Of a stretch of 35,612 nt of DNA, positions 2,076 to 35,612 are shown piece by piece; position 1 is the stretch's first letter; each line of letters begins with the position of its first letter. Source of the DNA: Candidatus Methylomirabilis tolerans. GTDB lineage: Bacteria; Methylomirabilota; Methylomirabilia; Methylomirabilales; Methylomirabilaceae. The DNA lies in NCBI GenBank assembly GCA_019912425.1, contig JAIOIU010000065.1, forward strand, positions 1 through 35,612, given 5' to 3'. The notes beneath the pieces are model-generated. The model ran no database searches and was not told the origin of the DNA. It worked only from the letters and a program-made list of their open reading frames with translations. The translations under genes were made by a program, and so were the position numbers.

Positions 2076-4262
2076 TTATCGTCCGTCTTCGTTTTCATGT
2101 TGGGAGTCAATCTCATTCTTAGTGACAATGCGCAACGGCCTCCGATGTCTCTCACGTTGCGTTCTCGCATCATCGTGCATCTCGGGGTAAACTATAAAAT
2201 CTTGAACCTCTTCATTGTGACTATGGTGAAATAAATTATCCATGTATTTGAAGTATTGATCAGTATATTGTGTATTCAAAATCCATAGAGTATATATTTT
2301 TTCATCGGGTACGGACTGGCTTTGCGCATAGCTAATAGGATACAATAGTATAGGGATTTCATCCTGCCGCTCATAATATTTTGATAGCATGGAGAGGCAG
2401 ATATAAATTGTATTAATGGGAAGATCGTTAGCGTCCAGGATAATAACGTGGAAACAATTCGTCAGGTTAGACAGGTTTAAGCCGATATCAGAAACGTTTA
2501 CCACTATAACTGCCTTTAGAGCATCATTTTTTTTCAAAGAAAAAAGAAGCCTTTCCCTTTTGAAACCAAGCCTGTTAAATTCCTTACTGAGATTATCATT
2601 ATCAATCATATCCGGCGTTAAATCCAGGGCTTGAAGCATCAAGCCTCCGGATTCATATTCATAAAAATTTTCCAGTTCTAAAAGGTCTTCGGGCTGGGTT
2701 TTTGTTAATGTCATTGCCTCCGGTAAACTAGTCGGTTGTGTGCCAGTTCTTGCAAAACAGAAATAGACAAAGGAATCAACAGAACAAGCCTTTGGAGTAT
2801 TGATTTCTCGGGCACACCCTCCAAAAACACGCATAGGAAACTTATTATCTGGTCTGAAATAACAACCGATAAAATTCATGTGTGTTGAATAGAGACGGTG
2901 AAAATCGTTTATATAACGTTCAACCTGTCTCAGCACAACAAGTCCGGTATTGCCATGTTCTGCTCTGAGGGAGGCATGGTGGTGAATTAGCCATGTATCT
3001 TCATAAAAACGGATTATAGATATATGCGCTTGAATTATGCCTTTGTCTTGACATACAAAATGCCTGGCTATATGGGGATTTTCGACATAAAGCTTCTCAT
3101 AAGTTTCTTTAAATCTTTCCTTGTCAGCGCACATAAGGGCATATTTTTTAGGATAGATAAAACCTGTCTCGAAAAAGAACCTCCACAGCGCATCCATATC
3201 CACCCTATTGCAAACGTAGGCCTTTTTATTTACCGCCTGATGCAAATAACTCGAAAGTCTTACCTGTTCCTGGATATCCATATCTAAGATGGTCATTCCG
3301 CACTTCGCGAGAGTTTTGTCATCATTGGCTTTATAAACATTTCTATTAACAACCTGGGATTTGCATCTGATTTTAAAATCATGTGCTAATTCTATGTACA
3401 GTTCCGGGATAATCATTCCGGCTAAAAGCACAGCATTGTCCATATCTTCCTCAACAGAAAAACCAGAACCTGTCAGATCTTCAACTTCCATATTGATAAG
3501 TTTCTGAGTAAAAGGATGTGTAAAGCTAATATTTGGTGAGGGGGACAATTTGTGTCGAGAGCTTCGAAATTCTTTTGTCTTAAATCTGCGTATCTGATCG
3601 TTTACAGGTTTTAATACAAAGGCGCTCTTTTTTTGGCCATATGTTTGTCGGATTATCCTGCATTCTCCTGAATAAAGTACATCCTGGTTATTTTTGAATG
3701 TAACATAGACTGTATCTTCAGGATTAACCCAATGAAATGGTTGGGACGGCTCAGTTGATACTTCTATACAGAACGAGACAGCGCTAAAGTTCAAAAGAGA
3801 TCCGTAAAATATTATACCGTTTTGAATGAAATCAACTTTAATACCCTTGCATAAATGCCTTCTTACCTTGCGGTAGCTAAGTTCGTAACAAATTTCAGGA
3901 AGGCTGAAACTAATTCCTTCCTCACTTATTTCCTTTAAGGCAGCTTCAACAAGAATAAGCGCTAGATCATCTGTCAGTAGAAAATTTAGAAATTTGTAAG
4001 CACTCAATTTCTGTTTTAGTCCTGCTGGTTCAACCCACAAACATTCCAGACTATTTTCAAGACATGGCTGTGGCGTGACTTGAAGAGATAGGACGGTATC
4101 ATATTTTAGATGTTTGAAATTTATAAGTATTGTGCCAGTTTGAAAATTAATATGGTTCAGAATGTTTCTTAGGCGTTTTCTGGAGATCTTCTTTCTTTCT
4201 TCCAGTCCGTTATCTAGGCCGGCGTAGTGGGAAAACTTAGCAATTCTTTGGAGTCTATCCAT
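2076..4262 (-). CDS. PilZ-domain protein with acyltransferase-like C-terminal region
   Basis: A 728-residue cytoplasmic protein with no membrane segments. Around residues 226-340 is a PilZ domain, the c-di-GMP receptor fold, with arginines in RRFKTKEFRSSR (about 225-236) and the downstream DLTGSGFSV (262-270) matching the (D/N)xSxxG signature, though Thr replaces Ser. A weaker PilZ-like copy may occupy about 128-225 (RKVRR then LLNFSAVSF). Residues about 375-540 resemble acyltransferase-type (GNAT/FemAB-like) folds, but this is weak. The start follows AGAGGGTGG directly upstream, near the end of a decayed IS3 element. It precedes fadL by 16 nt. AT-rich codon use suggests transfer. A c-di-GMP-responsive regulator or acyltransferase is inferred, not shown. 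Confidence 0.7.
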   Translation of the reverse strand: MDRLQRIAKFSHYAGLDNGLEERKKISRKRLRNILNHINFQTGTILINFKHLKYDTVLSLQVTPQPCLENSLECLWVEPAGLKQKLSAYKFLNFLLTDDLALILVEAALKEISEEGISFSLPEICYELSYRKVRRHLCKGIKVDFIQNGIIFYGSLLNFSAVSFCIEVSTEPSQPFHWVNPEDTVYVTFKNNQDVLYSGECRIIRQTYGQKKSAFVLKPVNDQIRRFKTKEFRSSRHKLSPSPNISFTHPFTQKLINMEVEDLTGSGFSVEEDMDNAVLLAGMIIPELYIELAHDFKIRCKSQVVNRNVYKANDDKTLAKCGMTILDMDIQEQVRLSSYLHQAVNKKAYVCNRVDMDALWRFFFETGFIYPKKYALMCADKERFKETYEKLYVENPHIARHFVCQDKGIIQAHISIIRFYEDTWLIHHHASLRAEHGNTGLVVLRQVERYINDFHRLYSTHMNFIGCYFRPDNKFPMRVFGGCAREINTPKACSVDSFVYFCFARTGTQPTSLPEAMTLTKTQPEDLLELENFYEYESGGLMLQALDLTPDMIDNDNLSKEFNRLGFKRERLLFSLKKNDALKAVIVVNVSDIGLNLSNLTNCFHVIILDANDLPINTIYICLSMLSKYYERQDEIPILLYPISYAQSQSVPDEKIYTLWILNTQYTDQYFKYMDNLFHHSHNEEVQDFIVYPEMHDDARTQRERHRRPLRIVTKNEIDSQHENEDGR

Positions 4263-11692: not shown

Positions 11693-13500
11693 GCCGTCAT
11701 TCGCTCGACGATGACCCTTGCCCAGCGGCGCGCCCAAGGCGTCCGCCGCGCAGACGCCAGAGGCAGGTCTGCCCCTGCATGCCTCTGGGTTGTATCTGAC
11801 AACCACGCCGCCATTGGCAAAGAGAAGCCCGTCTTGGGGCGATGTACGACTAAATCCGGCAACGCCTTCGTGAGCGACCGCGCCAGCATAGTCTTGCCTA
11901 AGCCGGTAGCAAAACGTGACACGAACGTCCCGAGTGATTGAAGCAACTTCACATCGACCAAAGGTGTCCGCAGTTCCAATGAATGTTCCATGCTGGCCCA
12001 GTCGCTGTCGCGTAGCAGTTGGTTGCGCAGGTAAAATGTGGATTCCAGCAAACCAACGGCGGCGGTACCATCCCTGGCATCGGCCTTGGCCATGCCGGGC
12101 GGCGAGCCGCCAAGGCGCGCCAAGCCCTCCCCCGCCATGTCCGCCCCCATCAGGGCTGGCAGTTCCTCGGGTAGGAAAAGGCTGCGGTTAAGGAAATACA
12201 TGCCTTCCAAGGAAGCCATGAACGCCGGCATACCGGCGAGCTTGGGTTGCGACCGGCTCTTGGCCAGATAGGAACAGGGTATCCCCAGCACGGCGCGAGA
12301 ACCTGGAACGGCTGCAAGCGCCTGCCCCAGCGCAGCCATGCGTGGAATCTGTCGGAAGGAAGAATAGCCGCAAAAGAGTTCATCACCGCCGACGCCCGAT
12401 AGCACCACCTTGTAGCCGCGTTCGGCCGCCGCCTTGCTGGCGAACCACGTGTTGACGCCGTCGATGGAGGGCTGATCCATGGCGTCGAGAATGCGCGGGG
12501 TGTCCTGCTCGAATTCTGTACGGGAAACCATGCGCACATAGTGCGGCAGGCTATAGTGGGCCGCAATGGCGCGCGCCACAGGAACCTCGTCGTCATGGCG
12601 GCCGCCGAACTCCTCAAAGCCGATGGTAATACCCTCCACGTGTGCGCCCAGCTCAGACGCCAGACCGGCGGTGACCCCTGAGTCGAGACCTCCGGACAGA
12701 AACACGCTCACCGGAACATCCGCCACCAGATGGGCGCGCACCGAATCTGTCAGCGCCTGCCGTACCCGTTCCTGCAACTCCGAGGGAGATGGTGTGCAGC
12801 CATTTTCCTGCCAGTGGGTGCGAATGTCATACCAACGGACAGACGCGTCCGCCACGCCGGTGCGCACCCGCAACCAGTGCCCGGCCGGCAGCGCGAATAC
12901 ATCGCGGCACAGCGTCCACGGCTCGGGTACGCTGCCCCAGAGATAAAATCCCGCCAACCCCGCCGGTTCACGTTCTAAAGAAACTAGGCCGGAAGCGAGC
13001 AACGCCTTGACCTGGGATGCGAAGACGAAGCCATCCCTTGTTCGGGCGTAGTAAAGCGGCTTGATGCCATAGGGATCACGCGCGAGAAACAGTTCGCGGG
13101 TCTGGGTATCCCAGATGGCGAAGGCAAACATGCCACGCAGTCGACGCAACATCCGCTCGCCTTCTAAAGCAAAAAGATTGAGGAGGACTTCCGTATCGGA
13201 TGTGGTACGGAAGACTACGCCGTCCGTTTCCAGTTCTCGGCGCAATTCGCGAAAGTTGTAGATTTCGCCGTTGAAAACAATGGCATAGCGTCCGTCTGTG
13301 GATGTCATTGGTTGGTTCGCGCGGGGGTCCAGGTCGAGAATCGCAAGGCGGCGATGGCCCAGTACGACCCCGGCACTTAACCACTGGCCCTCCGCGTCGG
13401 GACCCCGGACGGACATGCGGGCCGTCATCCGCCGAACAGCATCAGGCGCTGATGTTTCTGCCGCCCCCAGTGTTGAGATAACACCTGCTATGCCGCACAT
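11683..13500 (-). CDS. asnB: AsnB-type glutamine-dependent amidotransferase
   Basis: 605 residues, the normal AsnB length. The N-terminal class II glutaminase has the catalytic Cys2 (MCGIAGV), RLAILDL and NGEIYNFRELR. The synthetase domain has the ATP pyrophosphatase loop SGGLDSG (269-275) and GVGGDELFCGY. Together these support asparagine synthase (EC 6.3.5.4) or a related amidotransferase. Copies inside polysaccharide loci, as here between GT4 genes, often amidate a sugar carboxylate or peptide-like substituent instead of making free asparagine. That role is inferred from context; either is possible. The stop overlaps the start of the following GT4 gene. Confidence 0.85.
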   Translation of the reverse strand: MCGIAGVISTLGAAETSAPDAVRRMTARMSVRGPDAEGQWLSAGVVLGHRRLAILDLDPRANQPMTSTDGRYAIVFNGEIYNFRELRRELETDGVVFRTTSDTEVLLNLFALEGERMLRRLRGMFAFAIWDTQTRELFLARDPYGIKPLYYARTRDGFVFASQVKALLASGLVSLEREPAGLAGFYLWGSVPEPWTLCRDVFALPAGHWLRVRTGVADASVRWYDIRTHWQENGCTPSPSELQERVRQALTDSVRAHLVADVPVSVFLSGGLDSGVTAGLASELGAHVEGITIGFEEFGGRHDDEVPVARAIAAHYSLPHYVRMVSRTEFEQDTPRILDAMDQPSIDGVNTWFASKAAAERGYKVVLSGVGGDELFCGYSSFRQIPRMAALGQALAAVPGSRAVLGIPCSYLAKSRSQPKLAGMPAFMASLEGMYFLNRSLFLPEELPALMGADMAGEGLARLGGSPPGMAKADARDGTAAVGLLESTFYLRNQLLRDSDWASMEHSLELRTPLVDVKLLQSLGTFVSRFATGLGKTMLARSLTKALPDLVVHRPKTGFSLPMAAWLSDTTQRHAGADLPLASARRTPWARRWARVIVERMTACE

Positions 13501-27967: not shown

Positions 27968-28705
27968 TTATTCTCCCAGCCTCTTTTGGCGCACGTGGGC
28001 ATTGATCTCGACCCACTCCGGATGGTGTTCGAGCAACGCCAGGATATCCCGCGTGTCGAACCCCGGCTTTACCGGATACAGTGCTTCGAGGATTCTCCGA
28101 ACCAACTCGAAATCTTCTGAGGTATCCACTGTCCATCGGTGGTAGCTGTGGTTTTCCGCATGAACCACATGGCCAATACGATAGCGGGCCGGCCGCGTGT
28201 AGATGAAGGGGGTAACATGTTCTCGCTCGAATTGCGCCTTGGCTTTCCGATGCGCCTCGTCCAACACACTGAACGGGAATACTTCGACCGCCATGCCATA
28301 GGGATAGCTCTGGGTCAGGGCGTTAGATACGTAATCGTACTCGGCCCGGTGGTCGAAATAAAACCGGATAGCCTCGTCGATCACGGCGGGATCGATGAGC
28401 GGGCAGTCTGAGGTCACGCGGACGACCACGCTGGCATGGTGGGATACGGCTGCCTGATAGTATCGCGCCAACACGTCGTACTCGGAGCCCCGCGTGACCG
28501 GAATGCCCAGACGCGCGCACAGGTTTACGATAGGGAGATCGGTATCGTTGGTCGTTGTCGCAATAACGATGCCGTCGGCCCACTTCACCCGCCGCAAGCG
28601 TTCGACCTGATATTCCAGCAGCGACTTGCCCATTACCTCCTTCAGCACCTTACCCGGCAGCCGGGTAGAGGTCATTCTGGCCTGGACGGTGATGACCGTG
28701 TTCAT
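27968..28705 (-). CDS. pseF: Pseudaminic acid cytidylyltransferase (PseF/SpsF type)
   Basis: 245 residues. The nucleotidyltransferase P-loop region VQARMTSTRLPGKVL (7-21) and the following RVTSDCPLIDPAVID place it in the SpsF/CMP-KDO-type cytidylyltransferase superfamily. In this position it should activate pseudaminic acid with CTP to give CMP-pseudaminic acid, the glycosyl donor; SpsF-like proteins in spore-coat loci do related work, so the substrate follows from context. The ATGA overlap with the pseC stop implies coupling. Confidence 0.88.
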   Translation of the reverse strand: MNTVITVQARMTSTRLPGKVLKEVMGKSLLEYQVERLRRVKWADGIVIATTTNDTDLPIVNLCARLGIPVTRGSEYDVLARYYQAAVSHHASVVVRVTSDCPLIDPAVIDEAIRFYFDHRAEYDYVSNALTQSYPYGMAVEVFPFSVLDEAHRKAKAQFEREHVTPFIYTRPARYRIGHVVHAENHSYHRWTVDTSEDFELVRRILEALYPVKPGFDTRDILALLEHHPEWVEINAHVRQKRLGE

Positions 28706-29862
28706 GCGGCGAATAGCTCTCGCAACGTATCTACCACGCGATCCTGCTGCGTGTCGGTCAAGGTCGGGTAAAGCGGCAGGGTGATGGTCTCTTCACCGTG
28801 AGCCTCGGCTTCCGGGAACTGCCCGGGTTTGAAACCCAGATCGCGGTAATAGGGCTGCAGGTGCACGGGCATGTAGTGCACGTTTACGCCAATGCCTGCA
28901 GCGCGCAGGTTTTCAAAGATCTCTCGACGGGTCTTTTTGGGGACTTCAGGCTTTATGCGCACCGCGTAAAGGTGGAAGGCGGAATAGTTTTCCGGCCTTA
29001 CTGTCGGTAGGCGCAATGGCAACCCTTGGAGCCTCTCGTCGTAACGAGAAGCCAGGCCGTTGCGGCGCTTCACCCATTCTTCCAGGCGCGCCAGTTGACT
29101 TACACCTAGCGCTGCCTGGATATCGGTCATGCGGTAATTGAAGCCCAACGCCTGCTGCTCATAGGCCCAAGGTCCGGCGGGCGGCCGGGTCATGCGTTCA
29201 GGTTCACGGGTGATTCCGTGGGTCCGCAGCATCCCCATGCGCCAGGCGAGCTCTTCATCGTTGGTAAGCGCCATGCCGCCCTCGCCGGTGGTGATGATCT
29301 TGACCGGATGGAAACTGAATACGGTAATATGCGACCAGCGGCAACTGCCTACCGGCTCGCCGCGGCGTGAGGCACCGATAGCGTGAGAGGCATCCTCGAT
29401 AACCTTGAAGCCGAATTCCTTCGCCAGTTCCCAAATGGCTTCCTGTTCGGTGGGTTGGCCGGCGAAGTGTACGGGCACGACTACCTTTGGCAGGCGTCCG
29501 CCTTGTTTGGCCTGAAACAGCTTCTCCTGCAGTCGGGGTAGACTCAGGTTCCACGTGGCTGGATCAATGTCGACAAAATCCACCCCGGCGCCGCAATAAC
29601 GCCCGCAGTTAGCCGATGCCACGAAGGTGTTCGGTACCGTCCAGAGCCGGTCGCCTGGTCCCAGGTCCAGCGCCAGGCAGGCAATGTGCAGAGCCGAGGT
29701 GGCGGAATTCATCGCAACGGCGTACGTTGCCCCCACCTTTGCGGCGACCGCCTGCTCGAAACGCGGTACCATGGGGCCTTGGGTGAGAAAATCCGAGCGC
29801 AGCACATCGACGACTGCATCGATGTCGGCTTGGCTGATCTCTTGGCGGCCGTAGGGGATCAT
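28702..29862 (-). CDS. pseC: UDP-4-keto-sugar aminotransferase PseC
   Basis: 386 residues, a DegT/DnrJ/EryC1-type PLP aminotransferase. The N-terminus IPYGRQEISQADIDAV is typical. Lys188 in SFHPVKIITTGEGG is the Schiff-base lysine, and Asp157 in VIEDASHAIG contacts the PLP ring nitrogen. PseC transaminates UDP-2-acetamido-2,6-dideoxy-beta-L-arabino-hexos-4-ulose, made by PseB, to the 4-amino L-altro sugar using glutamate. It starts 3 nt after the pseB stop and its own stop overlaps pseF. Confidence 0.93.
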   Translation of the reverse strand: MIPYGRQEISQADIDAVVDVLRSDFLTQGPMVPRFEQAVAAKVGATYAVAMNSATSALHIACLALDLGPGDRLWTVPNTFVASANCGRYCGAGVDFVDIDPATWNLSLPRLQEKLFQAKQGGRLPKVVVPVHFAGQPTEQEAIWELAKEFGFKVIEDASHAIGASRRGEPVGSCRWSHITVFSFHPVKIITTGEGGMALTNDEELAWRMGMLRTHGITREPERMTRPPAGPWAYEQQALGFNYRMTDIQAALGVSQLARLEEWVKRRNGLASRYDERLQGLPLRLPTVRPENYSAFHLYAVRIKPEVPKKTRREIFENLRAAGIGVNVHYMPVHLQPYYRDLGFKPGQFPEAEAHGEETITLPLYPTLTDTQQDRVVDTLRELFAA

Positions 29863-29865
29863 TTG

Positions 29866-30864
29866 TCAAATGTACCCGATCTTATCCCGGTAGCGGTCAA
29901 TCCAGTCCCGCAGGGTCTCAACGCTCATCCACTCCGGGTTGTTGTCGGAACGATAACTGAAATCCCGATCAACCTTCACGCCTCCATTGCTACGAGCCGG
30001 ATCCTGGCTCCAGTTGTGTATCGCGGGCAGAATTTTGAAGTGATCGGGATACGCATAGGTGTATGGCGCATCCTCAATGCCGATCATCTGCTCGTGGACC
30101 TTCTCACCCGGGCGAATGCCAACGATCTCAAAGCGCGCATCCGGGGCAACGGCATATGCGATATCGGTCAGCTTCATCGAAGGGATTTTCTTAACGTAGA
30201 TCTCGCCGCCCACCATGTCCTCAAAGGCATGCCATACCAGCTCCACACCTTCTTCGAGGGTAATCATAAAGCGGGTCATTCGTTCGTCGGTGATCGGCAA
30301 TACACCCGTATGGGCGATGCTCATGAAAAACGGGATGGCCGAACCCCGCGATCCCATGACATTGCCGTATCGCACGACGGCGAATCGGGTCGTGTGGGCA
30401 CCGGAATAGGAGTTACCGGCGATAAACAGCTTGTCGGAGGCGAGCTTCGTCGCCCCATACAGATTCACCGGGTTGCTGGCCTTGTCAGTAGACAGTGCGA
30501 CGACCCGCTTCACGCCTCGGTCGATACAGGCATCGATGAGGTTCATCGCCCCCATGACGTTGGTCTTCACGCACTCGAACGGATTGTATTCGGCCGTTGG
30601 CACGATCTTGGTGGCAGCGGCGTGTACGACATAGTCAATGCCATCGAGGGCGCGGTTCAGCCGCTCCTTATCGCGCACATCGCCGATGAAGAAGCGCACC
30701 CGGGGGTCCTCGCCATAGATCTTTGCCATCTCCCACTGTTTCATCTCGTCGCGCGAAAAAATGACCAGGCGCTGCGGGTTGTATTTTGCAAGGGTCATGG
30801 GCACAAAGGTGTGGCCGAAGGAACCCGTGCCGCCGGTAATGAGGATGGAGGAGTTTGTTAACAT
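29866..30864 (-). CDS. pseB: UDP-GlcNAc 4,6-dehydratase (inverting) PseB
   Basis: 332 residues. The NADP-binding GGTGSFG is at 11-17. The active-site set Asp127-Lys128 (STDKASNP) and Tyr136-x3-Lys140 (LYGATK) is that of PseB/FlaA1, which removes the 4,6-water of UDP-GlcNAc with C5 inversion. RYGNVMGSRGSAIPFF, RMTRFMITLEEGVELV and PGEKVHE are also FlaA1-like. It is the first committed step of the pathway. It starts 93 bp after the ABC transporter stop with no terminator visible in the gap, so one transcript is likely. Confidence 0.93.
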   Translation of the reverse strand: MLTNSSILITGGTGSFGHTFVPMTLAKYNPQRLVIFSRDEMKQWEMAKIYGEDPRVRFFIGDVRDKERLNRALDGIDYVVHAAATKIVPTAEYNPFECVKTNVMGAMNLIDACIDRGVKRVVALSTDKASNPVNLYGATKLASDKLFIAGNSYSGAHTTRFAVVRYGNVMGSRGSAIPFFMSIAHTGVLPITDERMTRFMITLEEGVELVWHAFEDMVGGEIYVKKIPSMKLTDIAYAVAPDARFEIVGIRPGEKVHEQMIGIEDAPYTYAYPDHFKILPAIHNWSQDPARSNGGVKVDRDFSYRSDNNPEWMSVETLRDWIDRYRDKIGYI

Positions 30865-30957
30865 AGCGATTGCGCTTTACATAATGTTTGTAAGCCAGAA
30901 CAATAATTCACGGCAAACGACTACATTCAGGGATCGCAAATGATCTGATCGGAGATT

Positions 30958-32745
30958 TTATCGTGCCGCCATCGCCCGGAAGGTTTCATTACCCTCTATC
31001 AGTTCGTCGTAGGTGCCCTGCGCAGTAATGCGGCCACGGCGCAAAAGATATATCCGGTCGCACTCGCGTACAGTCGTGAGGCGGTGGGCGATGAGGATGA
31101 TGGTAATCTCGTGTCCCAGATTGTGCACTGCCTCCATCACTGCCTTTTCGGTTAGATTGTCCAGCGCGCTCGTGGCCTCGTCCAGTATGAGCACCTGCGG
31201 GTTGTGATACAGGGCGCGGGCGATGCCGATTCGCTGCCGCTGCCCGCCGGAGAGGCGCACGCCGCGCTCCCCCACGGTGGTGGCGTAGCCTTGCGGCAGT
31301 TCGTAGATTACGAAATCGTGGAGGTTGGCAATGCGGGCGGCGCGTTCCACTGCAGCTTGGTCGATTTGCTTGGGTTCCAGGCCGAAGGCGATGTTCGCGG
31401 CCACGGTGTCATCGGCCAGATAGATCTGTTGTGGTACATATCCAATGGCGCGCTGCCACCGGCGACGGTTACTGGCGTCGATGGGGACACCGTCCACCTC
31501 AAGGGAGCCGGCGTCAGGTTCGAGCAGGCCAAGGATCAGATCCACGGTGGTGGTCTTGCCGCTGCCGGTGACACCAACCAGCCCGACGGAACTGCGTGCT
31601 GGGATTCTGAGGTTGAGATCCTTGAGCGCTGGCTGCAAAGCTTTAGGGTAGGCGAAGGTGATGCCGTTGAGGGTGATGGCGCGAGCGAGCACCAAGGGTG
31701 CGGTCTCGCGATCGGCGTGCACGCTGGGTACGAACCCGACCAGGTCGGCGTGCAGGACGTTGAGCGACGGACCCACATAGCGAAGCTTCGTAAAACTTCC
31801 ATAGATCTGTTGCAGGGCAGGCATCAAGCGGTAACCCGCGAACGCATAAAGGCCGATGATGGGTAGGGCCGTCGCCAACCCGCCGCTGCCGGCCATCAGG
31901 TATAGTACCACCAGCAGCATGCCTCCGAAGGCTACAGCCTCGAGGGCAAAGCGCGGCAGTTGCCCGATCACCGAAGCCGAGGCTTGATGCCTGGCGTAGA
32001 TCTCAGCCGGATGGGCGAAACGCTGAACATAAGCGTTTTCAAGGCCGGCCACCTTGACCTCCTTGATGCCGCCGAAGGCCTCGCTCACCACTGTAAAGCG
32101 TCCCTCGTTGGCTGCCAGACGCTCGCTGCCGATGCGCGACAGAAAGCCGCTTATTAGGCGATAAATGAGCCCATAGGCCATCCCCAGTACACCGCCAACG
32201 ATCAAAGCCAGCTTCGGATCGACTGCGAGTAGCAGGCCGAGCAACGCCAGGGCGACCGCACCCTGCGCTACCAGAATCATCATCGGCATCATCGCGCCAT
32301 CGATGACCTGATTGACCTCCAATAATACCGTCTTACCCAGGTCCGCGCTATGTCGGTTGAGGAACCATGCATAGGGTTGATGGAGGTAACCCGCAATCAG
32401 CCGCGTGCCGAGGCTGTATTCGCGCATCAAGGTAAAACGCAACTGAGCGTAGGTAGTGATCGCCTTGAAGGCCAGCGAGACCACCAGGGCCACAAATGCC
32501 ATCACACCGAGGGAGAACAAGAAGGCCTGCGCATCACTGAAACCGAGCGCGGCGTAGATTCGCGCGAGAATGGCATTGGTTTCGATCAAGTGCGGATTCG
32601 CCAATACCGCCATGAAGGGCATGATTGAGGCAACCCCAATGACATCCAGGAGCGCCATAACCAGAACCATGACGAGCAACAACGCCGCACGGCGACGTTC
32701 GTTCGGCGTGAGGAGATCAAGTATTTTTTTTAGAGTGATGAGCAT
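30958..32745 (-). CDS. PglK/MsbA-type ABC exporter, probable lipid-linked oligosaccharide flippase
   Basis: 595 residues with fused membrane and ATPase domains. The N-terminal ~320 residues have six hydrophobic segments. The ATPase domain has Walker A GVTGSGKTT (391-399), the Q-loop near 439, signature LSGGQ (498-502) and Walker B LILDEATSAL (519-528), with a downstream AHRLTTV switch. The family includes PglK and MsbA. In this setting it is the best candidate for flipping the completed repeat unit across the inner membrane; no Wzx-type flippase gene is present in the window. It starts immediately after the stop of the fcl remnant (TAAATG). Confidence 0.9.
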   Translation of the reverse strand: MLITLKKILDLLTPNERRRAALLLVMVLVMALLDVIGVASIMPFMAVLANPHLIETNAILARIYAALGFSDAQAFLFSLGVMAFVALVVSLAFKAITTYAQLRFTLMREYSLGTRLIAGYLHQPYAWFLNRHSADLGKTVLLEVNQVIDGAMMPMMILVAQGAVALALLGLLLAVDPKLALIVGGVLGMAYGLIYRLISGFLSRIGSERLAANEGRFTVVSEAFGGIKEVKVAGLENAYVQRFAHPAEIYARHQASASVIGQLPRFALEAVAFGGMLLVVLYLMAGSGGLATALPIIGLYAFAGYRLMPALQQIYGSFTKLRYVGPSLNVLHADLVGFVPSVHADRETAPLVLARAITLNGITFAYPKALQPALKDLNLRIPARSSVGLVGVTGSGKTTTVDLILGLLEPDAGSLEVDGVPIDASNRRRWQRAIGYVPQQIYLADDTVAANIAFGLEPKQIDQAAVERAARIANLHDFVIYELPQGYATTVGERGVRLSGGQRQRIGIARALYHNPQVLILDEATSALDNLTEKAVMEAVHNLGHEITIILIAHRLTTVRECDRIYLLRRGRITAQGTYDELIEGNETFRAMAAR

Positions 32746-33325
32746 TTACGGCTGACGTCTGGCGTTCTGGTACCAGGCGATGGTGCGACGGAGGCCCTCC
32801 CGGAACTCAGTTTTGGCTTTGAAGCCAAACTCTTGTTCGGCTCGGCTGGTGTCCGCACATCGGCGGGACTGGCCATCGGGCCGGGTGGGATCACAGACGA
32901 TCTTTCCCTGAAACCCAGAGAGGGTGGCGATCATCTCAGCCAATTCGGTTATCGTGATCTCAAACCAAATGCCGAGGTTCCACACAACTTGTACCCCGCC
33001 GAACGTTGTTGCCGGTGTATTCGGGCATCTCGAAGCTGACCTTGACATGGGATTGCGCGCCCAGGTGGTAGATCTCGTCCGGCCGGATGTTGTAAATCAG
33101 GTGGGTAAGCTGTTCCATGCTGGAGAGGTCCCCGTAGTGAAGGAACAGCCGGGCATTCGGGTCATGGAGATCCTGATAGAGATGGTCGATGCGGCCGGTA
33201 TTGAACGTGCTGGCCCGGCGGATGAGGCCGTGGACCTCATAGCCCTTGGCGAGCAACAACTCGGCGAGGTACGAGCCGTCCTGGCCGGTGATGCCGGTGA
33301 TCAAGGCGCGGTTGTTATGCGTCAT
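32746..33325 (-). pseudogene. GDP-mannose 4,6-dehydratase / GDP-fucose synthase deletion fusion
   Basis: The 5' part (33325 to about 33018) encodes the first ~105 residues of Gmd: [58 protein letters not shown]. At about 32995-33018, within MPEYTGNN, it changes to the C-terminal ~80 residues of GDP-L-fucose synthase ([21 protein letters not shown] ... DPTRPDG ... [14 protein letters not shown]) in another frame. The Gmd catalytic tetrad and the first two-thirds of Fcl are missing, so a deletion of roughly 1.7 kb is implied by normal gene lengths. No active enzyme is expected. The Gmd start codon lies inside a GCGT-word array. Confidence 0.85.
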
Positions 33326-33490
33326 TGCGTCATTGCGTCGTCGCGTTGATAGCGTCTATGGCGTTGATTGCGTTGGTTGCGTCTGTAGCGTTCGTTGCGT
33401 GCGGCGTGGGTTGCGTCAGCGCGTCTATAGCGTTGATTGCGTGCGGCGTGGGTTGCGTTGGTTGCGTCGTCGAGCCTATTGCGTGGGGTT
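33319..33490. repeat. GCGT-word array 1 (degenerate 7-9 bp tandem repeat)
   Basis: Nearly continuous short words begin GCGT followed by 3-5 variable bases (TGATT, CTATA, TGGTT, CGTC, CAGC, GCG, GGGTT). The 20-mer GCGTGCGGCGTGGGTTGCGT occurs at 33397-33416 and 33439-33458. Word lengths vary (9, 8, 7), so no reading frame survives and it is probably non-coding. It contains the start codon of the gmd remnant and overlaps the 3' end of the DUF5615 gene. Confidence 0.8.
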
Positions 33491-33864
33491 TTCTTCTGCA
33501 CCGATGGGTAGCCGCCGTACTCGCAAACGCGACTCCTCGATCACTACCACAGCCCCACGTCTTAGTGATTCGGCCACTTCTTTCAAGTTGGAGAGCAGGA
33601 AAGGTACTTGGGCTTCCGGTCTTCGGGGACCATCCGCCGGAAGAGGATCACGGATGGTTTGTTCTCTTGGCGGAGGGCCAGCAGAGTTCCGAAATCGGTA
33701 TCGGCCGAGACGATCACGCGATCCTCACGGGCCGCACGATCAAAAATGACTTCGTCGTCCGATTCTTGCAATCCATAGTCACGTACGTGAAGCGCGTCAT
33801 GCCCCGCCTTTCGGAGACCTTCAGTTACGACTGGCGACAGGGCATTGTCTACCAGAAACCTCAT
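33476..33864 (-). pseudogene. DUF5615 PIN-like toxin gene with a frameshift
   Basis: The frame from 33864 encodes [35 protein letters not shown] and VILFRR, the PIN-like core of DUF5615 toxins, then stops early at 33583 after 93 residues. A second minus-strand frame picks up the family C-terminus directly: [36 protein letters not shown], ending with the TAG at 33476. A one-base deletion near 33624-33635 explains the switch. Its start overlaps the DUF433 stop (ATGA). The native 3' end lies inside the edge of array 1. Confidence 0.8.
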
Positions 33865-34091
33865 GCCGGGATTGTCAGCGGCAGTTCACGCTCGCGGACG
33901 GCCTCTGCGGCGTACTGCAAGGCTTCTCGGATGTCCTCCTGATGGAGATCGGGATAGGTCTTCAGTATCTCTTCTGTGGTCATGCCGTCCGCCACCATCG
34001 CCACCACTGTGGCGACCGGAATGCGTAACCCACGAATGCATGGGACCCCACCCATCCGTTGAGGATTCACGGTAATTCGCCTAAATTTCAT
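33861..34091 (-). CDS. DUF433-family antitoxin
   Basis: 76 residues, full length for the family. It shows the DUF433 pattern: [22 protein letters not shown] (Arg-Ile then GGxPxIxGTRIPV-like), a helix [12 protein letters not shown], and [18 protein letters not shown] at the end. Such proteins are helix-turn-helix antitoxins, typically encoded just before DUF5615 PIN-like toxins, and they autoregulate the pair. Its stop overlaps the toxin start, as expected. The toxin partner is frameshifted here, so this antitoxin may now act alone. Confidence 0.88.
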
Positions 34092-34261
34092 GGCTGCTCG
34101 CCTTCCGCTTTGTTCACAGCTCCCACGTTATTCCGCTGAAGGTCTTGAAAGCCCCTGGATCAGATTGAAGTCAGTAACCACACTTTCCAGGATTAACAAG
34201 CTGTCTTTTCCTTCACTCTAAGCTAAATGAGAGAGCGTGTCCAGACGTTCGAGTCATGTCT

Positions 34262-34512
34262 GCGTCTATAGCGTTGGTTGCGTCGATGGCGTCATCGCGT
34301 CTATGGCGTTCATTGCGTGCGGCGTGGGTTGCGTTGTTGCGTCAGCGCGTTCATTGCGTTTATAGCGTGGGTTGCGTCTATAGCGTCATTGCGTCGATTG
34401 CGTCCGTTGCGTGCGGCGTGGGTTGCGTTGATTGCGTCAGCGCGTCCATTGCGTTTATAGCGTCAGCGCGTCTATAGCGTCAGCGCGTTGATTGCGTGTC
34501 GCGTTGGTTGGG
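34262..34512. repeat. GCGT-word array 2 (degenerate 7-9 bp tandem repeat)
   Basis: About 28 GCGT-words (CTATA, TGGTT, CGATG, CATC, CTATG, TCATT, GCG, GGGTT, TGTT, CAGC, TTATA, CATT, CGATT, CCGTT and others). The 20-mer of array 1 recurs at 34315-34334 and 34409-34428. Mixed word lengths break every frame. It ends inside the 3' part of the HicA-like gene and lies downstream of it, about 170 bp upstream of the DUF433 gene. Confidence 0.85.
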
Positions 34513-34756
34513 TTGGTTGCGGGTTTGGGGGTTTGGGGTCACTCTGCCAGCATTCTTCGCGGGAGACGCCTGACTGTCGCAGGAGCCGAGCCAACAGATC
34601 TACGCTAATCTCCCCCTGATGCGGGTTGGGTAAAATCAATCGGCGGTCTCCACGGAGCATAAACTGATGTCGACCACCCATGTAAGGACCTTCAAACCCC
34701 AACCTATTTAAACGTTCAATCAGTTCGCGTCGTGAAACAGGCGGGAGACGAGACAT
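34472..34756 (-). CDS. hicA: HicA-family mRNA interferase toxin with an array-derived tail
   Basis: 94 residues. The first ~65 are HicA-like: SRRELIERLNRLGFE, then HQFMLRG with the catalytic His, and ILPNPHQGEISVDLLARLLRQSG. HicA toxins are small double-stranded-RNA-binding-like RNases and usually end soon after this helix. Here the last ~25 residues (proline and threonine rich) are read through array 2, so the original stop codon has been lost or replaced. The gene starts directly after the HicB stop (TAAATG), the antitoxin-first order. Activity depends on whether the tail is tolerated. Confidence 0.82.
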   Translation of the reverse strand: MSRLPPVSRRELIERLNRLGFEGPYMGGRHQFMLRGDRRLILPNPHQGEISVDLLARLLRQSGVSREECWQSDPKPPNPQPTQPTRHAINALTL

Positions 34757-35005
34757 TTAAGCCGGCGTCTTCTCCGGCAGGTGGATGGCTACCTCCCCCA
34801 AGGCCGGAATTGGTAAGCCTTTCGCAATGCTAAACAGCACCCAGTCCTCAATTGCCTCGGCTAGCTTGCGACGACATTCTTCCAAGGTCTTACCCGTCGC
34901 CCAGACCCCGGCGAGCGGTGGCACCTCGCCGTAGAACGGTTCTTCATCTTTGATGATTTCATAATGTGCGCATTCGAGCGCGGTCTCAATGTACTGCAAC
35001 AACAT
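34757..35005 (-). CDS. hicB: HicB-like antitoxin
   Basis: 82 residues. The N-terminal EIIKDEEPFYGEVPPLAGVWATGKTLEECRRKLAEAIEDWV is the HicB/UPF0150 RNase-H-like fold, whose members neutralise HicA. The protein lacks an obvious C-terminal DNA-binding domain, so autoregulation may be weak or absent; short HicB proteins of this kind are common. Its stop is adjacent to the hicA start, so the two are coupled. About 65 bp upstream lies array 3. Confidence 0.85.
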   Translation of the reverse strand: MLLQYIETALECAHYEIIKDEEPFYGEVPPLAGVWATGKTLEECRRKLAEAIEDWVLFSIAKGLPIPALGEVAIHLPEKTPA

Positions 35006-35070
35006 GTCGCCCCCTCCTCAGTTCACCTTCTCGCACATTATAACACCTTTTCAGGCTAACCTACCCGGTT

Positions 35071-35245
35071 GCGTCGATGGCGTCAGCGCGTCCATAGCGT
35101 TTATAGCGTCAGCGCGTCCATAGCGTTGATTGCGTCTATAGCGTTCATTGCGTCGATGGCGTCAGCGCGTTGATTGCGTCTATAGCGTCCATAGCGTTTA
35201 TAGCGTCAGCGCGTCCATAGCGTGGGTTGCGTTCGTTGCGTGCGG
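35071..35245. repeat. GCGT-word array 3 (degenerate 7-9 bp tandem repeat)
   Basis: About 19 words of GCGT plus 3-5 bases; GCGTCAGC, GCGTCCATA, GCGTTTATA, GCGTCTATA and GCGTTGATT recur several times. Word choice overlaps arrays 1 and 2 but the order is different. It begins shortly upstream of hicB and ends about 30 bp past the premature stop of the DUF5615 gene at 35278. Confidence 0.85.
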
Positions 35246-35277
35246 CAAGACATGCGAGATGAGGGGGAGGGTTACCT

Positions 35278-35472
35278 TCACATGGTGTGGACATCCCGTG
35301 TCACCAGGAGCCGACCCTCGGTGGCCGCCCACGCGAGGATCTCTCGATCCGGCCGACCCGCCAAGCCGATGTCGCTGACGCTGCATACATCGATTCTGGG
35401 AGCCACCCGGCGGATGCCGCGGAGAATGCGCTGATCGGCATCCTCGTCAAAGAGCAGTCGTACCGCCGTCAC
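35278..35472 (-). pseudogene. DUF5615 PIN-like toxin gene truncated before array 3
   Basis: 64 residues from a GTG start that overlaps the DUF433 stop. RLLFDEDADQRILRGIRR, VSDIGLAGRPDREILAWAA and GRLLVTRDVHTM are the N-terminal half of a DUF5615 PIN-like toxin; members normally continue ~45 more residues after this point. Here TGA follows immediately and the next ~35 bp lead into array 3, with no recognisable toxin C-terminus in any frame. The conserved acidic residues of the N-terminal half are present but the fold is incomplete, so I infer loss of function. Confidence 0.75.
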
Positions 35473-35612
35473 GGACGCGCAGGCTGTGCGGCGATCAACG
35501 GGGATCGGAGGTCGGCATTTCGCATCCGCGCAGCCTCACGCAAACGCGTCACCTCCGTATCGTACGTGGCGATCTCGGCGTCGACCTCTGGACGGTGAGC
35601 CAGGTAATAGGC
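35469..35612 (-). CDS. DUF433-family antitoxin, C-terminal part (runs off the window)
   Basis: The last 47 codons before the TGA at 35469 read AYYLAHRPEVDAEIATYDTE and then EVTRLREAARMRNADLRSPL. The YYLxHRxEVDA pattern is typical of the C-terminal end of DUF433 antitoxins with a longer tail. The gene enters from beyond the right end, and its stop overlaps the GTG start of the truncated DUF5615 toxin (GTGA), the usual order of this pair. Confidence 0.7.
   Translation of the reverse strand, partial: AYYLAHRPEVDAEIATYDTEVTRLREAARMRNADLRSPLIAAQPARP

What the first reader, a model, noticed from the sequence alone, without database searches (positions are those of the whole stretch)
33319..35245. 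Three GCGT-word arrays punctuate a row of toxin-antitoxin modules
Arrays 1, 2 and 3 (33319-33490, 34262-34512, 35071-35245) are built from one vocabulary of GCGT plus 3-5 bases, in different orders, sharing a 20-mer four times. They alternate with DUF433/DUF5615, HicB/HicA and DUF433/DUF5615 pairs, all on the same strand, and each array sits at the 3' end of a toxin gene. That resembles a cassette row with a repeat as boundary, like the attC-bounded cassettes of integrons, but with unit and architecture that match neither attC sites nor CRISPR repeats. The words may be replication slippage products, or a recombination or protein-binding substrate that collects addiction modules.
Basis: partly seen in the sequence, partly recalled or inferred. 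Interest (0 to 1): 0.8.

Follow-up and report, generated by a model that had tools for sequence, protein, structure and literature searches.

The report
Strand-oriented GCGT word arrays between genes
In a methane-oxidising bacterium, short shuffled DNA words starting with GCGT fill gaps between genes, including the gaps in a row of toxin-antitoxin modules; they look like a new dialect of a known kind of gap-filling repeat rather than a new integron.

Summary
In detail: three GCGT-word arrays (33319-33489, 34262-34509, 35071-35246) separate DUF433/DUF5615, HicB/HicA and a second DUF433/DUF5615 pair. Similar rows occur in congeners; in one, 9 of 11 gaps hold arrays. The same arrays also lie between ordinary genes. 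Of 68 arrays examined, 65 were intergenic, with a strand rule: ACGC words run up to start codons, GCGT words follow stop codons. The same rule is published for GGGNATC heptamers in Xanthomonas and Nostoc. In one rtcB-rmuC gap, two genomes of one species carry arrays with different core words. TA genes usually lack arrays (DUF433: 29 of 30 loci fetched). attC-like candidates in the rows are about as frequent as in shuffles, although integron parts occur elsewhere in the genus. Modules do move: HicB and HicA segments 99% and 98% identical to the window's sit beside different arrays in the same-species genome. Most likely these are intergenic short-word repeats, grown by multi-word duplication and oriented by constraint on the transcript; in TA islands they are bystanders or passive homology for module exchange. 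New variant of a known kind.

The parts
33319..33489 (+). Array 1, 19 GCGT words (ACGC in the sense of the flanking genes); apparently supplies the start codon of the dehydratase remnant
33583..33864 (-). DUF5615 (PIN-like) putative toxin
   Evidence: Pfam PF18480 E 6.3e-23
33861..34091 (-). DUF433 putative antitoxin
   Evidence: Pfam PF04255 E 4.1e-25
34262..34509 (+). Array 2, 29 GCGT words; the HicA frame ends inside it at 34472
34472..34756 (-). HicA toxin, C-terminus shifted in frame and running into the array
   Evidence: Pfam PF07927 E 3.8e-8; comparison with G080 C5
34757..35005 (-). HicB antitoxin (UPF0150)
   Evidence: Pfam PF21748 E 8.3e-31
34505..35032 (-). HicBA module; its two outer parts are found beside other arrays on two contig ends of the same-species genome G080 (the middle 34702-34867 lies on neither)
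   Evidence: 99.4% over 163 bases and 97.9% over 193 bases, sharp outer ends
35071..35246 (+). Array 3, 20 GCGT words
35278..35472 (-). Second DUF5615, matching the N-terminal half of the family
   Evidence: Pfam E 9.3e-11; 93% DNA identity to G013 C17
35469..35612 (-). C-terminal 47 residues of the second DUF433, cut by the contig end
32746..33325 (-). GDP-mannose dehydratase remnant (profile 1-106 and, weakly, 294-332), starting inside array 1

Best explanation
The arrays are intergenic short-word tandem repeats, one dialect (consensus GCGT-Y-N-R-T-N) of a family of 7-9 base words in this genus. They enlarge by duplication of multi-word blocks and can be replaced as whole blocks. They persist where a gap is free: between TA modules, or between stop and start of neighbouring genes. 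Their strand orientation probably reflects constraint on the transcript. The A/C-rich, weakly folded ACGC strand is tolerated or useful just before start codons; the GCGT strand follows stop codons, and where both arms occur they can form a hairpin. In TA islands the arrays are bystanders or passive homology for module exchange, not dedicated attachment sites. Shown: location, orientation, block repetition, allelic dialect replacement at one site, module relocation. Inferred: the selective reason and any role in recombination.
For: Genome-wide in G000: 62 pattern places versus 0 for the reversed control. 65 of 68 arrays intergenic; in co-directional gaps 36 ACGC-sense arrays (24 nearer the start) versus 11 GCGT-sense (10 nearer the stop) (binomial 0.0003, Fisher 0.0012). 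One rtcB-rmuC gap in 11 genomes: ACGC arrays in 3, GACC in 2, vestiges in 3, none in 3, by eye; G000 and G080, same species with ~99% identical flanks, differ in core word there. Word order in the window repeats at lags of 5 and 11 words (P 0.005 and <0.001, 11 lags tested) with no excess of identical neighbours. On the sense strand 7 of 19 tested sequences, all with two arms, fold with z of -4 or lower, while the three one-armed window arrays fold less than shuffles (z +2.6 to +2.9). The same orientation rule and inverted pairs are published for GGGNATC repeats (PMC4692102); repeats abutting start codons for TAACTGA (PMC4679880).
Against: TA islands are richer in arrays than the rest: 5 of 51 DUF433 genes in five genomes lie within 1 kb of an array versus 0.42 expected, from 3 islands, which bystanding alone does not explain. 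The word grammar is very regular for neutral decay (T at position 8 in 82 of 82 nine-base words of the G000 loci, 0.94 in G013). Shine-Dalgarno depletion at array-proximal starts is not significant (4 of 19 versus 96 of 275, P 0.32), so a translation role is unproven. Of the 16 non-window sequences folded, 3 had positive z on the sense strand. Four other array sites carry the same words in G000 and G080, so replacement was seen at one site only.
Confidence: 0.6

Rival explanations
1. The arrays are recombination substrates that gather TA modules: repeated words give homology (or a recombinase site) at which modules insert, leave or swap, making a cassette row.
For: Row with arrays in 9 of 11 gaps in G013; modules shared between genomes in different neighbourhoods; outer parts of the window's HicBA are 98-99% identical in G080 with ends at or near arrays; the window's last pair is 93% identical to a G013 pair while five ordinary gene stretches of the rmuC region are 77-86% identical between the two genomes (L185 versus L204); TA enrichment near arrays.
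Against: Breakpoints must fall in gaps, and the gaps hold arrays, so coincidence is expected. One search masked arrays, so block ends there partly reflect masking. Most DUF433 modules lack arrays (29 of 30 loci). Arrays also sit between ordinary genes. No 3-word strings are shared between window arrays. No hybrid arrays or empty sites were found.
Confidence: 0.22
2. The words are binding sites for an RNA- or DNA-binding protein (such as ribosomal protein S1 on the A/C-rich leader, or a nucleoid protein on RTNGCGTY), with the array as a regulatory platform.
For: Strongly constrained word consensus; many arrays within a few bases of start codons; a similar proposal is in print for TAACTGA (PMC4679880, abstract and one section).
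Against: The core word differs at one site between same-species genomes and arrays are missing there in 3 of 11 genomes; SD depletion not significant; no candidate protein was sought.
Confidence: 0.14
3. The rows are integron cassette arrays.
For: The genus has integron integrases (2 of 15 genomes over the TIGR02249 cut-off) and a cassette-like row with attC-like sites holding a DUF433 gene in G007.
Against: attC-like candidates versus mean of 8 shuffles: window 2 vs 1.8, G013 row 6 vs 4.9, G009 10 vs 7.4, G005 7 vs 5.6, G080 3 vs 3.1; G007 control 12 vs 4.4, its 7 best being the sites found by eye. A second control, L314, was weak overall (6 vs 4.4, its top 3 being the eye-found sites). Two strong single hairpins did occur in row contigs: L231 1608 (outside the TA gaps) and L206 5339 (inside a GCGT array). 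No GCGT arrays around the integrase matches in L314-L316, one of four words in L317. No tyrosine recombinase on the window contig.
Confidence: 0.02

Closest known systems
GGGNATC / GGGGA(C/T)T heptamer repeats of Xanthomonas and Nostoc (Rehm et al. 2015, PMC4692102; abstract and three sections read)
   Same: Intergenic; between co-directional genes; on the non-coding strand close upstream of starts or on the coding strand close after stops; inverted pairs occur; length and sequence vary between close relatives.
   Different: Words of 7-9 bases without G-tracts, so no G-quadruplex expected; word vocabulary shuffled; core word differs between same-species genomes at one site; arrays reach 29 words; dense in some TA islands, whereas the paper reports stable contexts.
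TAACTGA direct repeats of Beggiatoaceae, Cyanobacteria, Bacteroidetes (MacGregor 2015, PMC4679880; abstract and one section read)
   Same: Intergenic short-word arrays within a few bases of start codons; patchy spread over phyla; few canonical ribosome-binding sites there.
   Different: There one fixed heptamer; here a degenerate nine-base consensus with dialects; SD depletion not significant here.
Integron cassette arrays with attC sites
   Same: Rows of small modules including TA pairs.
   Different: attC-like candidates in the rows near shuffled counts and no tyrosine recombinase on the window contig; integron parts lie elsewhere in the genus.
STRR heptamers of filamentous cyanobacteria (recalled; only a search listing seen)
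   Same: Degenerate intergenic tandem short words.
   Different: Unit length and word grammar differ; not compared here.

Membership tests
Strand-oriented intergenic short-word repeats (Rehm type) | Over-represented outside coding sequence | tested here: met
   65 of 68 arrays with at least 3 different words intergenic; loci mostly fetched because they hold arrays
Strand-oriented intergenic short-word repeats (Rehm type) | Non-coding strand near starts, coding strand near stops | tested here: met
   tests
Strand-oriented intergenic short-word repeats (Rehm type) | Seven-base unit with G-tracts able to form G-quadruplexes | tested here: not met
   GCGT words, mostly of 9 bases
TAACTGA-type start-codon repeats | Ends within a few bases of the start codon | tested here: met
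   Many, not all, ACGC arrays lie 0-15 bases from the start
TAACTGA-type start-codon repeats | Shine-Dalgarno rare downstream of repeats | tested here: inconclusive
   4 of 19 versus 96 of 275, P 0.32
TAACTGA-type start-codon repeats | One fixed heptamer | tested here: not met
   45 distinct words in 130
Integron cassette array | attC hairpin sites at each junction | tested here: not met
   Counts near shuffles in five rows; positive control G007 exceeds, second control weak
Integron cassette array | Integron integrase at the head of the row | tested here: inconclusive
   No tyrosine recombinase on the window contig, but the contig ends inside the row
CRISPR | Near-identical repeats with unique spacers | tested here: not met
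   Words adjoin without spacers and vary

The most novel reading that the evidence does not exclude
A GCGT-Y-N-R-T-N word system, written in the same grammar in several phyla, is actively built and exchanged at gene boundaries by an unknown process that can replace one dialect with another at the same gap within a species; in some genomes it serves as the shared homology from which TA islands are assembled.
Probability: 0.13. Interest if true: 0.8.

Novelty: new variant of a known kind. Interest (0 to 1): 0.5.

Why it matters
A strand rule published for GGGNATC now holds for an unrelated word, and by eye for GACC/GGTC, which suggests a shared cause at the transcript or repair level that can be tested. 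Two same-species genomes with different dialects in one rtcB-rmuC gap give a natural allelic pair. The TA islands offer a case to test whether simple repeats help addiction modules gather without an integrase.

Tried and rejected
Integron cassettes: tested with an attC-like hairpin scan against shuffles and with TIGR02249; rejected for the rows. A first attC scan with strict boxes found nothing even around real integrases and was replaced by a looser one. CRISPR: rejected, no spacers. Coding repeats: rejected for the window, mixed 7/8/9-base words in gaps, although 3 of 68 arrays lay inside predicted genes. Known RNA: no Rfam match at gathering scores in L200, L210 (the window 31000-35612), L191, L206. 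Single-word slippage: no excess of identical neighbours (1 seen, 3.46 expected, P(<=1) 0.12). Array-to-array copying: word pairs shared between window arrays no more than shuffled (4 vs 3.5). General TA-array link: rejected as a rule, kept as island enrichment. Label corrected: my notebook calls the rtcB-rmuC site 'nuo'; NCBIfam shows RtcB-like, RmuC-like (below its cut-off) and ThiC proteins. Papers: listings for Methylomirabilis with tandem repeat, toxin-antitoxin or integron showed no paper about these arrays (listings only); TA with intergenic repeat, tandem repeats and genomic islands gave none; two searches were broader listings.

Full report
What is there. The window is a whole contig (G000:C65) of a 2.65 Mb genome. 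The genus is inferred to be Candidatus Methylomirabilis: the same-species genome G080 has a 7,202-base contig identical to NSJM01000113.1, labelled with that genus, and G006 is one contig of 2,752,854 bases, which I recall as the size of M. oxyfera. At its right end three + strand arrays of GCGT words lie between TA genes on the - strand. Chance is excluded: 14 pattern matches versus 0 in 100 shuffles.

Words. Words are mostly 7, 8 or 9 bases; nine-base words follow GCGT-Y-N-R-T-N, with T at position 8 in 82 of 82 nine-base words of the G000 loci, 78 of 78 of the G009 loci, and a fraction of 0.94 in G013. Word order in the window repeats at lags of 5 and 11 words (11 lags tested), with no excess of identical neighbours, so growth was probably by multi-word duplication. 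The four copies of the 20-mer come from one word pair used twice in array 1 and twice in array 2.

Elsewhere in the genome and genus. G000 has 62 places of a three-word pattern, the reversed control none. Of 80 genomes searched with a stricter pattern, G000 included, 9 matched: G000, 7 of its 13 congeners, and one genome of another family of the class with a single match. Arrays lie in short gaps between ordinary genes, such as a CzcB/CzcA-type metal-efflux pair on C60. In 42 loci, fetched mostly because they hold arrays, 65 of 68 arrays with at least three different words were intergenic; arrays with fewer different words were dropped before this count. In co-directional gaps 36 read ACGC in the gene sense (24 nearer the start) and 11 read GCGT (10 nearer the stop); 9 lay in divergent gaps, 8 in convergent gaps and one at a locus edge (tests). 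Gene calls are from my own simple finder and starts are approximate.

Inverted arms. Several gaps run stop, GCGT arm, ACGC arm, start. On the sense strand 7 of 19 tested sequences fold with z of -4 or lower. Of the 16 not from the window, 3 have positive z. The three window arrays, which have one arm only, fold worse than shuffles on the sense strand (z +2.6 to +2.9).

One site in eleven genomes. The RmuC-like protein on G000:C25, downstream of an RtcB-like gene (my notes call this site 'nuo', wrongly), has orthologues in 11 of 15 genomes. Read by eye, the gap before it holds ACGC arrays in G000, G013 and G008, GACC/GGTC arrays in G080 and G009, vestigial words in G003, G004 and G012, and none in G005, G006 and G010. 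G000 and G080 are the same species with ~99% identical flanking genes, yet hold different core words there. Four other array sites carry the same words in both genomes. So replacement is real but was seen at one site.

TA rows. In G013:C17 (L200), 17 proteins between 3,389 and 12,743 were scanned (four ORFs under 55 aa left out); 16 matched TA-type families at E up to 0.01, some below Pfam's curated cut-off; the other matched DUF7387 weakly and lies beside HicA. Of 11 gaps printed there, the two flanking ones included, 9 hold arrays. G009:C11, G005:C76 and C1, G013:C17 (right part) and C19, and G080:C89 show smaller or mixed rows, with several genes matching no family. By eye, an array is usually followed by an array-free stretch before the next module's start.

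Is the TA link general? No. Of 91 DUF433 matches in 15 genomes, 30 loci were fetched and one, the window, has a GCGT array in the flanks held (up to 1.5 kb); glycosyltransferase controls gave 0 of 30. By coordinates in five genomes, 5 of 51 DUF433 genes lie within 1 kb of an array versus 0.42 expected, from three islands (the array list for G013, G009 and G005 used the stricter pattern). In Nitrospirae MAG loci, 10 small genes beside arrays gave no TA family, 3 of them no match at all.

Do modules move? Yes. Outer parts of the window's HicBA (34868-35030 and 34510-34701) are 99.4% and 97.9% identical to two contig ends of G080, while homology stops at or near the arrays on the outer sides. The middle 166 bases lie on neither contig, so that the two ends form one module in G080 is inferred. 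G000:C126 begins inside what may be a second HicA copy (96% over 53 bases). The window's last pair is 93% identical to one in G013, while five gene stretches of the rmuC region are 77-86% identical between these genomes. Because arrays were masked and gaps contain arrays anyway, this does not show that arrays cause the movement. Window 28000-33318 has only one weak match in G080 (E 4.3e-9), so this locus differs between the two.

Integron test. The genus has integron integrases: full length in G013:C37 (469.5 bits), a broken one in G009:C13, pieces in G007 and G008, and short C-terminal pieces in short frames in 13 of 15 genomes by my reading of a cut list (all 14 control genomes also match this model, below its cut-off). 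G007:C27 has a cassette-like row with attC-like sites that includes a DUF433 gene. My hairpin scan recovers the G007 sites (12 candidates versus a mean of 4.4 in 8 shuffles); a second control, L314, was weak overall (6 vs 4.4) although its top three hits are the eye-found sites. In five TA rows counts stay near shuffles (2 vs 1.8, 6 vs 4.9, 10 vs 7.4, 7 vs 5.6, 3 vs 3.1), with two strong single hairpins, one outside the TA gaps and one inside a GCGT array.

Other phyla. Labelled sources include Nitrospirae MAGs (S009_28, L.E.N.5_1, B7D1T1), a Stahlbacteria MAG, Syntrophaceae UBA4054, a Deltaproteobacteria MAG and an Elusimicrobia MAG. The pattern itself selects for this grammar, so the agreement between phyla is partly by construction.

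Known kind. Rehm et al. 2015 (PMC4692102, abstract and sections 13, 14, 16 read) report the same placement rule, inverted pairs and length variation for G-rich heptamers. MacGregor 2015 (PMC4679880, abstract and section 13 read) reports TAACTGA arrays abutting starts with few Shine-Dalgarno sites; here that depletion is not significant (4 of 19 versus 96 of 275, P 0.32). I file the arrays as a new variant of this kind.

Verdict. Observation confirmed; cassette reading partly supported; arrays most likely oriented intergenic word repeats that also fill some TA islands.

Noticed in passing
L314 5079-6155 (G013:C37); L316 1-8000 (G007:C27:52000-59999): Integron parts in the genus: a full-length integron integrase in G013 with attC-like sites nearby and, in G007, an integrase in two frames beside a row of small genes with attC-like hairpins, one of them a DUF433 gene.
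   Followed up: partly
G000:C45:674-775, C133:1038-1142, C162:101361-101471; similar in other congeners: Short C-terminal pieces best matched by the integron integrase model, in 13 of 15 genomes by my reading of a cut list; some lie within 2 kb of DUF433 genes (G013:C1, C48; G080:C29; G005:C112).
   Followed up: no
L303 (G009:C24) gaps before and after the rmuC-like gene; L298 (G080): A second word dialect (GACCAAACA, GACCAGATA with inverted GGTC arms) in the same gaps; G010 (L301) has GACTCAATA-like words in the next gap.
   Followed up: partly
L200 about 4200-4250, 11775-11838, 13231-13294: Three array gaps in the G013 TA island share a stretch of roughly 60 bases just before the array (92% identity for one pair) that reads like the C-terminal end of a NusG-like protein (by eye).
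   Followed up: no
window 34472-34520: A one-base difference between G000 and G080 makes the window's HicA read on into the array words, giving a different C-terminus.
   Followed up: yes
window 32746-33325: GDP-mannose dehydratase remnant with its middle missing, in two frames, starting within array 1.
   Followed up: partly
L182 8401, L203 2125, L198 2908 and 5259: Seven-base ACCCTAC/ACCCTAA arrays (telomere-like) also occur in this genus.
   Followed up: no
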